Program-made: the position numbers and the translations under genes
Shown here: piece after piece, positions 8,658 through 11,921 of the stretch
Numbering within the stretch: position 1 is the stretch's first letter
How the letters are laid out: the number at the start of each line of letters is the position of its first letter
Source: Bacillota bacterium
Lineage (GTDB): Bacteria > Bacillota > Clostridia > Lachnospirales > Bianqueaceae
Reading direction: 5' to 3'
DNA length: 64,000 bases
Assembly: GCA_017441925.1 (NCBI GenBank)
Contig: JAFRUE010000002.1
Span: 124,001-188,000, forward strand
Notes under the pieces: generated by a model
The model's input: only the letters and a program-made list of their open reading frames with translations
What the model was told of the DNA's origin: nothing
The model's database searches: none

Positions 8658-9236
8658 TCATGCCAGTTTCTTGTATACGGTCATCTCAATAACAGAATTC
8701 TTAATGCTGACCTTGATCTCGTCCGCAACATGCGTAATGACAGATTTCTCCAGCTCATCCCAGGCTTCCTCTGCGCCTGCACGCTTCTCCGCCAGAGAAC
8801 GCTCGATCTCCAGCGCATAGGCACGCATACTCCACTCCATGCCTGCTCCGGCTTCTTCATCCTCAAAACCGATCGTGAAAACAGGCAGATCATCTACCGG
8901 CTCGAAGAAAGCTCTGATCTTGCCCATAAAGCCCTTATGCGCTTCGTTCACGCCGCTTGAAGAAGCGGAGATCAGTTTCTGCCTAATGTCGTAGTCGGTA
9001 GCTGACTGCACACGAAGATGCAGTTCATAGTTATCGTCTTCATTCTCGATCCAGAACTTGCCGTCCAGTGAACCTGTGATCGCGCGGACCATGCTCATCA
9101 TCTCTTCTGCCATAAGGCGCAGATACATCGCGCTCTTGGGGGACAGTTCGCCGTATGCCGCAACGCGTTCAGTCGTTTTAAGGACAAGCCCGATCTTGTC
9201 CGCACCGTTGGATACCGCAATAATATCGCTTCTCAT
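8658..9236 (-). CDS. Degenerate GHKL (HATPase)-like regulatory protein
   Basis: This 192-aa protein lies 13 bp after a STAS gene. The region AMYLRLMAEEMMSMVRAI (about 35-52) sits where RsbW/SpoIIAB-type anti-sigma kinases have the N-box helix, but the Asn that binds Mg-ATP is not present, and no clear DxGxG box follows. An insert (about 95-150) precedes a final strand pair ending MTVYKKLA. The best reading is a partner of the STAS protein in a switching module, possibly one that no longer hydrolyses ATP. No sigma factor or PP2C phosphatase is adjacent. Homology is inferred from context plus a short motif, so alternatives remain open. Confidence 0.5.
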   Translation of the reverse strand: MRSDIIAVSNGADKIGLVLKTTERVAAYGELSPKSAMYLRLMAEEMMSMVRAITGSLDGKFWIENEDDNYELHLRVQSATDYDIRQKLISASSSGVNEAHKGFMGKIRAFFEPVDDLPVFTIGFEDEEAGAGMEWSMRAYALEIERSLAEKRAGAEEAWDELEKSVITHVADEIKVSIKNSVIEMTVYKKLA

Positions 9237-9249
9237 ATCCCGTTCTCCT

Positions 9250-9549
9250 TTATTCGATGGTCAGAATTTCCGAAAAGCCCGTAACGTCAAAGATTTCCTG
9301 AATGATCTCGTTGACGTTGACGACCTTTAATCCGCCTTTCTCAGCCATCGTCTTCTGGATCGAAAGGATAACACGAAGTCCTGCAGATGAAACATATTCG
9401 AGTTTCTCAAAATCCAGTGTCAGGCTTTCCGCTTCTGCCAGTGTATCCTTCATCGCAGTCTCAAGCTCAGGGGCCGTTACGGTGTCAAGTCTTCCTTCCA
9501 GAGCAACGACGGTCCTGCCGTCTTCAATTGTTTTAGTAATATTCAGCAT
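9250..9549 (-). CDS. STAS-domain anti-sigma factor antagonist-like protein
   Basis: This 99-aa single-domain protein has the SpoIIAA/RsbV pattern: VVALEGRLD at the N-terminus, then LDFEKLEYVSSAGLRV, where the Ser at about 54 matches the phosphorylated Ser of SpoIIAA, and a C-terminal EIFDVTGFSEIL. Such proteins bind anti-sigma kinases or other output partners when unphosphorylated. The gene has a strong promoter and is followed by the GHKL-like gene, its probable partner. Confidence 0.85.
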   Translation of the reverse strand: MLNITKTIEDGRTVVALEGRLDTVTAPELETAMKDTLAEAESLTLDFEKLEYVSSAGLRVILSIQKTMAEKGGLKVVNVNEIIQEIFDVTGFSEILTIE

Positions 9550-9643: not shown

Positions 9644-10339
9644 TCAGGTGCATCTGCCATCTTGCCGCGTTTCCTGAGGCGGCTGCCACATGAACAGGCC
9701 TTCAGCCTCCGCCAGCTTTCTGACCCTCTCCAGGAATACCGGGTCGGTACCGTATACCGTGACAGACGTATCACACGGATCCAGATCGATCATTGCCTCC
9801 CGTGCCTCGAATACCGCGCGGAAAAAGCCGTTCGCGGGAATATCGGCAAGCTTCCCGGCAAAGGTCTCCGGATCCGGCTCTTTCTCCCAGCTCATGCATG
9901 AATCAAATGTTACCGCCATAGAATCATAACAGTTGAGCCGGAGGAAGATCTCTGCATATTTACGCCGGAGCACTTTGCCTCTTTCCGGCTGCAGGAAATA
10001 CCGTTCCACGTCAAAATACTGTCCCGGCGCATATGCAGGAACCTGTTCCGGGAGATTGTCGAGAATGTAATAGTTCCCCTCAAGGAGCTTTCCCATCAGA
10101 TCATCATACTGTCTCGGATCCTCTGCAGCTGCGTCCGCATCCGATGCCGCCTCAGTCAACACTTCTATTTTCATGATATCTGATTTGAAGATCTGAACGC
10201 CGCCGATCCCAAGGCTCTCCTCTTCCCGTCCGAATTCATGCAGCCCGTAACCGGATGGATACGAATCCGCTGTCCCGGTAAAAACCGAACCGTCCGTCGT
10301 ATGGATTTTCACTTCTTTTCCGTTAAAACGTTCGAGCAT
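9644..10339 (-). CDS. Uncharacterised protein with LSm-like N-terminal domain
   Basis: This 231-aa protein begins MLERFNGKEVKIHTTDGSVF, followed by GTADSYPSGYGLHEFGREEESLGI and FKSDIMKIEVL; together these look like the five-strand SH3-like barrel of LSm/Hfq-type proteins (about residues 1-60). An acidic linker follows. The C-terminal half (about 90-225) is not recognised; it is predicted helical and contains YAEIFLRLNCYDSM and an Asp/Phe-rich stretch. It starts 9 bp after the upstream Ser-rich membrane protein gene, so the two are one operon. LSm barrels usually bind RNA or peptides, but nothing here proves that. Confidence 0.55.
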   Translation of the reverse strand: MLERFNGKEVKIHTTDGSVFTGTADSYPSGYGLHEFGREEESLGIGGVQIFKSDIMKIEVLTEAASDADAAAEDPRQYDDLMGKLLEGNYYILDNLPEQVPAYAPGQYFDVERYFLQPERGKVLRRKYAEIFLRLNCYDSMAVTFDSCMSWEKEPDPETFAGKLADIPANGFFRAVFEAREAMIDLDPCDTSVTVYGTDPVFLERVRKLAEAEGLFMWQPPQETRQDGRCT

Positions 10340-10348
10340 AAGCTTTCC

Positions 10349-11842
10349 TCATTCAAAATACCAGAGGCCGGAGGCATCATACTCTGCGGGTAGCTCGATC
10401 CAGTCACCGTATGAGGCTTCGATGAACCAGCCATCCGCATCATGCTCCATCCAGCCATAGTCTCCGAAGTCAGAGGAGATCCCTTCATACCAGTACTGCC
10501 AGACAGGCGGCTCTACGTCAGTGTTGTACCAGACCCAGCAATCGGAATCCGGATCATAGAAACTCTCAAAAGAACTGTCCCATGTAAGTGTCTTGTCCGT
10601 TGCAAACCCGTCCTCGGAGATCTTATAGGCATTCTTCCCGCTCCGGACGAGATACAGCGTATCAAACTGGTTGTAATCAATCTCATCGATGTACCAGAGA
10701 TTTGACGTGTCATAATCCGCCGGAAGTCCTATCCAGTTGTCGTAAGAAGCTTCGATGAACCAGCCGTCAGCATCATGCTCCATCCATCCGTAATCTCCGT
10801 AATCCGAAGAGATCCCTTCATACCAGTACTGCCAGACAGGCGGCTCAACATCCGTATTCTGCCAGATCCAGCAATCGGAATCCGGATCATAGAAACTCTC
10901 GGCATCTTCATCCCAGGCAAGCCTCTTGTCGGCATCTCCTTCCGAATCGGAAAATCTATAGCCGTTCCCGCTCGTCCGTACAAGATACAGTACATCCTGT
11001 TCTTCCGGATCCGTGTAGGTCTGCTGGCTGGTGTAGCTGTAGCTGTCTGAAGGCCTGTCATTATCCGGCAGGTTATTCCCGATGAAATAAAGTATGATCG
11101 ACGCAATAAAGATCACAACGAACCACAGCAGGCAGCCGTGTCTGTTTCTCGTAGGCGGCTTATTCTGCCACATCTCTGACGGCTGCTCGCCCTGATACTG
11201 CGGATTTGACCGGGTATCAACGTCGGTCTGCATATAGTCATCCAGCTGAGAACGGATCTCCAGCGGTGCGCCGCAGCTTGGGCACTTCAGATCGCGGGAC
11301 TCCACGTCCTTCGCGTTCAGATTCATGACCGTATCCTGCCCGCAGTACGGACAATGACAAAGAACGTTCTCATACTGCCCGTTTTTGTTGAAGGCTACGT
11401 CATCATAACGCGTACCGTTCTCGTCATAATATCCTTTTTCGTAATACACACCCGTAGAATCATCCGTCCACGCAAAAGGATAATATATATAGTCGTGTCT
11501 GCGGCCGTATACATAATGCGGCCTCTGAGTGGTATTACCTGTCGGTTTGTATCCGGTCGGCTGATTATACCGGGTACGGCTCGGCTGGGTAAATCTTGAC
11601 GAGCTGCCGGAATGGCTGGAACCGGAATGCCGGCTTGGACCGCCTGAATACCGTCCGGAACCGGACGACCGGGAAGAGCCGGAATAAGAGGACCGTGAAG
11701 AAGACGATCTGGACGAAGAATAAGATGATCTGGATGAACTCGATCTGGAGCTCGATGAGCTTGACCGTGAACCGGATGAATGCGAACCTGAAGAATGTGA
11801 GCTTGAAGAATGTGAACTGGAGCTGTGTCCGCTCGGAGCCAT
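10349..11842 (-). CDS. Ser-rich zinc-ribbon membrane protein with duplicated C-terminal domain
   Basis: This 497-aa protein starts at ATG 11842 after GGGAGGTAAG. Its parts in order are a Ser/His/Gly/Arg low-complexity region (1-100), a Tyr-rich segment, a zinc ribbon with CPYC (164-167) and CPSC (187-190), one membrane helix (about 237-254), and two roughly 100-residue repeats (about 285-385 and 395-497). Each repeat opens with LYLVR and contains FYDPDSDCW, DVEPPVWQYWYEGISSD and YGWMEHDADGWFIEAS. With no signal peptide, the repeats would lie outside if the ribbon is cytoplasmic. The function is not recognised. It is cotranscribed with the LSm-like gene. Confidence 0.75.
   Translation of the reverse strand: MAPSGHSSSSHSSSSHSSGSHSSGSRSSSSSSRSSSSRSSYSSSRSSSSRSSYSGSSRSSGSGRYSGGPSRHSGSSHSGSSSRFTQPSRTRYNQPTGYKPTGNTTQRPHYVYGRRHDYIYYPFAWTDDSTGVYYEKGYYDENGTRYDDVAFNKNGQYENVLCHCPYCGQDTVMNLNAKDVESRDLKCPSCGAPLEIRSQLDDYMQTDVDTRSNPQYQGEQPSEMWQNKPPTRNRHGCLLWFVVIFIASIILYFIGNNLPDNDRPSDSYSYTSQQTYTDPEEQDVLYLVRTSGNGYRFSDSEGDADKRLAWDEDAESFYDPDSDCWIWQNTDVEPPVWQYWYEGISSDYGDYGWMEHDADGWFIEASYDNWIGLPADYDTSNLWYIDEIDYNQFDTLYLVRSGKNAYKISEDGFATDKTLTWDSSFESFYDPDSDCWVWYNTDVEPPVWQYWYEGISSDFGDYGWMEHDADGWFIEASYGDWIELPAEYDASGLWYFE
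10352..10990 (-). repeat. Direct intragenic duplication of a ~100-aa domain
   Basis: The region encoding residues about 395-497 (10352-10660) repeats that for about 285-385 (10688-10990). The copies share long near-identical runs at DNA level, for example the stretch reading CCAGTACTGCCAGACAGGCG on the plus strand at about 10493 and 10823. This points to a recent tandem duplication or gene conversion. Confidence 0.85.
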
Positions 11843-11892: not shown

Positions 11893-11921
11893 AGCATAAC
11901 ATAAAAGCCTCTGCCGGTCAA
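11893..11921 (-). promoter_or_regulatory. Promoter for the Ser-rich/LSm-like operon
   Basis: TTGACC (11921-11916) and TATGCT (11898-11893) are spaced 17 bp on the minus strand, about 50 bp before the start codon. Confidence 0.6.

What the first reader, a model, noticed from the sequence alone, without database searches (positions are those of the whole stretch)
9644..11842. LSm-like protein cotranscribed with a Ser-rich zinc-ribbon membrane protein
Neither gene belongs to a family I recognise, yet they form a clean operon. The pairing of an LSm-type barrel with a membrane protein carrying Ser/His-rich disorder, a zinc ribbon and a duplicated Trp/Asp-rich domain is unexplained and could be a new envelope-linked system.
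Basis: partly seen in the sequence, partly recalled or inferred. Interest (0 to 1): 0.52.

Follow-up and report, generated by a model that had tools for sequence, protein, structure and literature searches.

The report
Orphan toxin-antidote-like protein beside membrane protein
A gut-type bacterium carries a small protein whose front half folds like, and is related to, antidotes that other bacteria keep against RNA-cutting toxins; it sits in an operon with an unrelated, widespread membrane protein, and that pairing looks like a local accident.

Summary
The two genes are real and form a tight minus-strand operon: gene B (10349-11842, 497 aa), then gene A (9644-10339, 231 aa), 9 bases apart. The proposed joint envelope system is not supported: A's second domain is found in 0 of 80 B loci and an Sm-like domain in 1 of 80. 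New here is what A's barrel is related to. Its relatives outside the window's family sit directly behind Ntox50 RNase-toxin genes (19 of 22 matches; also phage phiC2), often in alternating toxin/Sm arrays. The solved Bacillus Ntox50 immunity protein YxxD also has an Sm-like fold and blocks its toxin with an acidic beta2-beta3 loop; A has a loop of that length in that place with four acidic residues. No Ntox50 was found in the window's genome. In its family the Sm-like domain is instead fused to acetyltransferases or, in A, to a second uncharacterised acidic domain. Best reading: A is an orphan, immunity-derived two-domain protein; B is an orphan membrane protein family of gut anaerobes. A's activity is inferred, not shown.

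The parts
10349..11842 (-). gene B, 497 aa single-pass membrane protein, orphan family
11522..11842 (-). B residues 1-107, Ser/His-rich tail starting MAPSGHSSSSHSS (family start mostly MPPS)
11273..11359 (-). B residues 162-190, four-cysteine zinc ribbon, present in 81 of 81 family members
11075..11137 (-). B membrane helix, about residues 236-256, predicted N-in/C-out
10691..10996 (-). B Trp/Asp-rich repeat 1 (residues 283-384)
10352..10663 (-). B Trp/Asp-rich repeat 2 (residues 394-497), 75/102 identical to repeat 1
10340..10348 (-). 9-base gap between B and A; with the end of B it holds A's Shine-Dalgarno-like GAGGAAAG
9644..10339 (-). gene A, 231 aa two-domain protein, net charge -18
10145..10339 (-). 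A residues 1-65, Sm/LSm-like domain related to Ntox50-adjacent proteins
10217..10261 (-). A residues 27-41, beta2-beta3 loop with four acidic residues
9662..10117 (-). A residues 75-226, 'DILP' domain (my label), uncharacterised family of small stand-alone Clostridia proteins
11893..11921 (-). promoter-like boxes upstream of B
   Evidence: weak

Best explanation
Gene A encodes an orphan, immunity-derived protein. Its N-terminal Sm-like barrel descends from the domain that other Clostridia and phage phiC2 keep directly behind Ntox50 RNase toxins. By analogy with YxxD it would bind a BECR-fold RNase, pushing its acidic beta2-beta3 loop into the basic RNA-binding active site, rather than bind RNA. 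The C-terminal DILP domain is a second acidic domain, probably another toxin- or RNase-binding module, so that A resembles a two-domain polyimmunity protein covering toxins delivered by neighbours. Gene B is an independent, widespread single-pass membrane protein (Ser/His-rich tail and zinc ribbon inside, aromatic-rich beta repeats outside, probably ligand binding) that shares a transcript with A only in this lineage. Shown: anatomy, Sm fold (predicted), relation to toxin-adjacent proteins, no conserved A-B pairing. Inferred: toxin binding, DILP's role, B's topology and function.
For: A profile from 18 relatives outside the window's family (toxin-array and toxin-adjacent Sm-like proteins, window excluded) finds A as the only good match among 846 window ORFs, E 8.4e-7; best of 2000 shuffles E 0.18. 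Of 22 matches outside the window's family, 19 have an Ntox50 gene directly upstream (gaps up to about 45 bases), on 11 of 12 contigs; phiC2p05 likewise follows the phage head protein with a C-terminal Ntox50. Ntox50 identity: Pfam E 1.6e-33. YxxD, immunity protein of the Ntox50 toxin YxiD, has an Sm-like fold and an acidic 14-residue beta2-beta3 loop that blocks the active site (PMC12700104, passages). A's model has the fold and a 15-residue loop YPSGYGLHEFGREEE there. Its structural neighbours include those reported for YxxD: YaeO 6jie, Hfq 3hsb, Lsm2-8 4m77. All 22 Sm-like rows are net negative, -5 to -14, and 21 of 22 DILP rows, which fits mimicry of nucleic acid. In L168 a DILP gene overlaps the end of a secreted toxin-like gene.
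Against: No Ntox50 in the window's genome or in 40 relatives (the search works, 7 of 7), so A has no visible cognate toxin. In the window's family the domain is fused to GNAT acetyltransferases, which may mean another role. A's loop is less acidic than described for YxxD (4 of 15, plus one Arg). YxxD itself was not matched by sequence. The DILP-toxin link rests on one locus whose toxin-like protein matches no toxin family.
Confidence: 0.55

Rival explanations
1. The Sm-like domain has been co-opted as a sensor or adaptor. In this bacterial family it and DILP are interchangeable N-terminal modules of GNAT acetyltransferases, so A would be a regulator that lost its enzyme, not an antidote.
For: Sm-GNAT fusions in G001, G004, G014, G015 and L085; DILP-GNAT in L008 and L165; a 2'-5' RNA ligase-GNAT fusion beside the DILP-GNAT gene in L008. 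All 5 family-f1 genomes with the Sm-like domain also have DILP, against 10 of 19 with DILP overall. No Ntox50 in these genomes.
Against: A has no enzyme domain; the acidic character typical of nuclease inhibitors is kept.
Confidence: 0.25
2. A is an RNA-binding LSm/Hfq-like regulator.
For: Fold matches are Hfq/Sm/LSm.
Against: Domain strongly acidic (-7 in 70 residues); relatives lie next to RNase toxins; the classic Sm1/Sm2 RNA-contact residues (recalled motif, not tested) are not evident by eye.
Confidence: 0.08
3. A and B form an envelope system: A works inside on the zinc-ribbon tail of B.
For: Tight co-transcription-type spacing; B's zinc-ribbon side is predicted cytosolic.
Against: No co-occurrence: DILP 0 of 80 and Sm-like 1 of 80 B loci; no recurring neighbour of B; among 295 genomes of the order only the window's own has convincing matches to both.
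Confidence: 0.12

Closest known systems
YxxD, immunity protein of the Bacillus subtilis Ntox50 toxin YxiD (PMC12700104)
   Same: Sm-like fold, acidic beta2-beta3 loop of similar length, family found next to Ntox50 genes
   Different: A has no toxin beside it, no Ntox50 in its genome, and carries a second domain; no direct sequence match to YxxD was obtained
phrog_1865 / phiC2p05 and the Sm-like proteins of tandem Ntox50 arrays (L157-L159)
   Same: A residues 2-60 align over almost the whole family model, E 8e-5; profile match E 8.4e-7
   Different: those are 65-100 aa stand-alone proteins, mostly directly behind a toxin gene
Polyimmunity proteins (PMC3482391)
   Same: several candidate immunity domains in one polypeptide, operon without toxin genes
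   Different: DILP is not a recognised immunity domain; Ntox50 had no assigned immunity family in that paper's table
Sm-GNAT proteins of the same bacterial family (L016, L161, L162, L054) and of L085
   Same: N-terminal Sm-like domain, E 4.6e-12 for A with a profile of these five alone
   Different: C-terminus is a GNAT acetyltransferase, not DILP
B family: Ser-rich zinc-ribbon membrane proteins of rumen/gut Oscillospiraceae, Lachnospiraceae, Saccharofermentans and Flexilinea
   Same: all features, up to 54% identity
   Different: most have one Trp/Asp repeat (58 of 81); the window has two (23 of 81 do)

Membership tests
Sm/LSm superfamily (gene A, residues 1-65) | N-terminal helix plus five-strand Sm barrel | tested here: met
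   AlphaFold2 H2-5, E9-14, E19-26, E42-45, E48-51, E55-62; Foldseek probability 1.00 to Hfq/LSm; VIA Z 7.0 to Hfq, rmsd 1.4 over 49
Sm/LSm superfamily (gene A, residues 1-65) | ring assembly and RNA binding | not testable with these tools
   needs biochemistry; acidic charge argues against
Ntox50 immunity (YxxD type) | sequence family found directly behind Ntox50 genes | tested here: met
   profile of 18 relatives outside the window's family finds A at E 8.4e-7; adjacency in 19 of 22 matches outside the window's family
Ntox50 immunity (YxxD type) | acidic extended beta2-beta3 loop | tested here: met
   residues 27-41, 4 acidic and 1 basic of 15; weaker than the loop described for YxxD
Ntox50 immunity (YxxD type) | sequence similarity to YxxD itself | tested here: inconclusive
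   no YxxD chain among hits, although its toxin partner is in the PDB copy as 9v8i
Ntox50 toxin-immunity pair | cognate toxin gene adjacent | tested here: not met
   upstream gene is B; no Ntox50 in the own genome (positive control). A is therefore not filed as one half of a toxin-immunity pair
Ntox50 immunity (YxxD type) | neutralises the toxin | not testable with these tools
   no bench data
Polyimmunity protein | two or more immunity domains in one protein | tested here: inconclusive
   second domain DILP has one toxin-linked relative (L168) and no family assignment
Polymorphic toxin (gene B) | conserved N-terminus with variable C-terminal toxin domain | tested here: not met
   the C-terminal Trp/Asp repeat is found in 81 of 81 members
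OCRE-type aromatic beta meander (B repeats) | OCRE fold | tested here: inconclusive
   5mf9 Z 2.6, rmsd 2.7 over 50

The most novel reading that the evidence does not exclude
In this family of Clostridia the Sm-like immunity domain, DILP, a 2'-5' RNA ligase-like phosphoesterase and GNAT acetyltransferases are exchangeable modules of a toxin-free RNase-resistance kit. Gene A would be a bifunctional orphan antidote covering two RNase classes without any cognate toxin in the cell, an architecture that I did not find described for polyimmunity proteins.
Probability: 0.25. Interest if true: 0.72.

Novelty: new variant of a known kind. Interest (0 to 1): 0.47.

Why it matters
It connects an unnamed LSm-like domain to a solved immunity mechanism, shows that Sm-like candidates for Ntox50 antidotes are spread over Clostridia and a phage in tandem toxin/antidote arrays, and gives a case where the antidote-type domain occurs without its toxin and is fused to other domains. 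It also defines a widespread, uncharacterised membrane protein family (B) of gut and rumen anaerobes.

Tried and rejected
A-B as a conserved system: rejected. B as polymorphic toxin: rejected, its C-terminus is invariant in kind. A fold for B's repeats: Foldseek best E 0.78, VIA best Z 4.1 and that to the zinc ribbon; weak rows for OCRE 5mf9 and the CPAP/Sas-4 G-box (4ld1, 4mpz) only. A fold for DILP: rows to spermine synthase N-domain (Z 7.3, rmsd 3.7 over 88) and RnlA (Z 7.0, rmsd 3.6 over 88), in the range that may mean only a common arrangement. DILP in phage, plasmid and viral collections: nothing. B core in plasmids: nothing. The WD40 rows and the leucine-repeat rows are, in my reading, repeat artefacts. 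PADLOC gave nothing useful. The viral structure library gave only uncharacterised small phage proteins on the Sm-like part. G206's weak B match (E 7.9e-4) overlaps an unrelated zinc-ribbon protein and was not counted. The simple motif count undercounts B's repeats; one search replaces it. Papers: 5 hits for Ntox50+immunity; searches listed no description of A, DILP or B. PMC12700104, PMC3482391 and PMC5576092 were seen as passages, with abstract starts in the listing; none was read whole.

Full report
The observation. Two minus-strand ORFs lie at the stated place: B, 497 aa (10349-11842), and downstream A, 231 aa (9644-10339). B's stop and A's start are 9 bases apart, with GAGGAAAG in front of A's ATG. 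The spacing supports co-transcription. No terminator was found between A and the STAS gene that follows 94 bases later; a strong one lies at 8646-8625, and a promoter-like box at 9617-9589 precedes the STAS gene. The transcript may therefore end after A or run on.

Gene A has two domains. AlphaFold2, with an alignment of 22 sequences whose other rows cover only the C-terminal part, gave mean pLDDT 86. Residues 1-65 form a helix and five strands. The best Foldseek PDB hits are Hfq and Sm/LSm chains, probability 1.00, E about 2e-3. VIA-align rows are YaeO 6jie Z 7.5 (rmsd 2.8 over 60) and archaeal Hfq Z 7.0 (rmsd 1.4 over 49). Residues 75-226 form a separate alpha/beta domain, which I call DILP after its D-I-L-P motif. 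Pfam and NCBIfam do not name A, but PHROGs family 1865 of unknown function covers A residues 2-60, E 8e-5, and one array Sm-like protein at E 1.4e-12.

Where the Sm-like domain comes from. A two-sequence profile of the N-terminus (A3) searched 295 genomes of the order and found 12 genomes and 27 listed matches. Five matches are in the window's family (f1): the window itself and four genes, all with a GNAT acetyltransferase behind the Sm-like domain. The other 22 are in 7 genomes of families f5 and f19. Scanning their loci for Ntox50 gave an Ntox50 gene directly upstream in 19 of 22. The exceptions are L065 (Ntox50 on the downstream side), L072 (second Sm-like gene after a toxin/Sm pair) and L068 (none). 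The matches lie on 12 contigs, 11 with the adjacency; several are in the same arrays and G264/G197 share a genus, so they are not 22 independent cases. Three arrays alternate toxin and Sm-like genes (L157-L159), with up to five toxin genes each. In Clostridioides phage phiC2 the homologous phiC2p05 starts 14 bases after the head morphogenesis gene, whose end encodes Ntox50.

Is A really related to these? A profile built from 18 relatives outside f1 (16 array or toxin-adjacent rows of A5, phiC2p05 and one L160 protein), without the window or any f1 sequence, was run against all 846 stop-to-stop ORFs of at least 40 aa in the window. A is the only match better than E 1: E 8.4e-7, 24.7 bits. The best of 2000 shuffles of A's first 70 residues reached 8.8 bits. 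A profile of five Sm-GNAT N-termini finds A at E 4.6e-12 and finds toxin-adjacent proteins at about 2e-6 to 5e-6 in that small set.

The mechanism in the literature. The Bacillus YxiD C-terminal toxin is Ntox50 with a BECR RNase fold. Its immunity protein YxxD has an Sm-like fold (closest: archaeal Sm 1I5L, YaeO 6JIE, Hfq 3HSB, Lsm8 4M77). Its loop Asp33-Asp46 between beta2 and beta3, rich in acidic residues, sits in the toxin's active site; the complex is 1:1 with Kd about 9.4 nM (PMC12700104, passages). A's model has the corresponding loop at residues 27-41, YPSGYGLHEFGREEE, with four acidic residues and low confidence, i.e. perhaps mobile. All 22 Sm-like rows are net negative. YxxD itself could not be matched by sequence, so the link to YxxD is through fold, loop and genomic neighbour, not direct sequence. 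In 2012 Ntox50 had no assigned immunity family (PMC3482391 table).

Why 'orphan'. No Ntox50 was found in the window's genome or in 40 relatives, including all 18 other f1 genomes searched. The 14 named control genomes also had none, so I ran a positive control: 7 of 7 genomes with Sm-like genes outside f1 have it. A is therefore not half of a toxin-immunity pair here. Polyimmunity loci and proteins without toxin genes are known from the 2012 survey (passages).

DILP. It is a stand-alone protein of roughly 130-200 aa in most of the 21 of 295 genomes of the order that have it and in 7 of 341 of the class (two genomes, G000 and G104, are in both counts). It is fused to GNAT in L008 and L165, and to the Sm-like domain only in the window. 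21 of 22 rows are net negative. In L168 it overlaps the end of a gene for a secreted protein with a toxin-like tail, but that protein matches no toxin family; the toxin resemblance is my reading of the sequence. In f1, all 5 genomes with the Sm-like domain also have DILP, against 10 of 19 with DILP (chance about 0.02 by hand, and many of these assemblies are incomplete).

Gene B. A search of the named genome collection found 119 relatives; 80 were kept, from rumen and gut Oscillospiraceae, Lachnospiraceae, Saccharofermentans and Flexilinea. In the window plus 80: a four-cysteine motif in 81 of 81 and always before the strongest hydrophobic helix; one such helix in 73, two in 5, none above the cut-off in 3; of the 78 with a helix, charge bias for N-in/C-out in 56, against in 14, neutral in 8. 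One Trp/Asp repeat in 58 and two in 23; the window's two are 75/102 identical, which suggests a recent duplication. AlphaFold2 (50 sequences, residues 105-497) is confident for the zinc-ribbon part and the repeats. The zinc-ribbon region is the only part with recurring PDB rows (Z up to 4.1); the repeats have none above Z 3.2. No neighbour recurs: the largest non-B cluster, with an ABC-ATPase-like representative, is in 12 of 80 loci at scattered positions. DILP is in 0 of 80 and Sm-like in 1 of 80. Within f1 only the window's genome has B. B's likely role, an envelope protein that binds a ligand outside through aromatic beta repeats and signals or anchors through a zinc-ribbon tail, is inference.

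Context.

Verdict. Observation confirmed, anatomy right, joint-system interpretation not supported. Gene A is best explained as an orphan two-domain protein derived from Ntox50-type Sm-like immunity proteins (confidence 0.55 for an immunity role; the fold itself is much surer). Its architecture, Sm-like plus DILP, was seen only here.

Noticed in passing
8658-9549 (minus strand): An anti-sigma-factor-antagonist STAS protein (TIGR00377) followed by a 192 aa unnamed partner that looks by eye like a degenerate anti-sigma kinase (no Pfam hit); strong terminator at 8646-8625.
   Followed up: no
L157 2244-5203, L159 3-3454, L158 3418-7762: Tandem arrays alternating Ntox50 RNase-toxin genes and Sm-like genes, up to five toxin genes in a row.
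   Followed up: partly
L161 3175-3885, L162 2874-3632, L016 967-1710, L054 1477-2175, L085 9219-9935, L008 1435-2463, L165 1501-2403: GNAT acetyltransferases with N-terminal Sm-like or DILP domains; function of these fusions unknown.
   Followed up: partly
L008 2-874 and L015 1918-2499: 2'-5' RNA ligase-like proteins, one fused to a GNAT, close to DILP genes; possible RNA-repair link.
   Followed up: no
L168 1486-2636: Secreted protein with a toxin-like C-terminus (by eye) overlapping a DILP gene; no family match.
   Followed up: partly
L116 5728-7812 and L120 5583-7661: A second shorter B-family paralogue directly behind B.
   Followed up: no
L126, L129, L130: B family in gut Flexilinea/Chloroflexi assemblies, suggesting transfer between phyla.
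   Followed up: no
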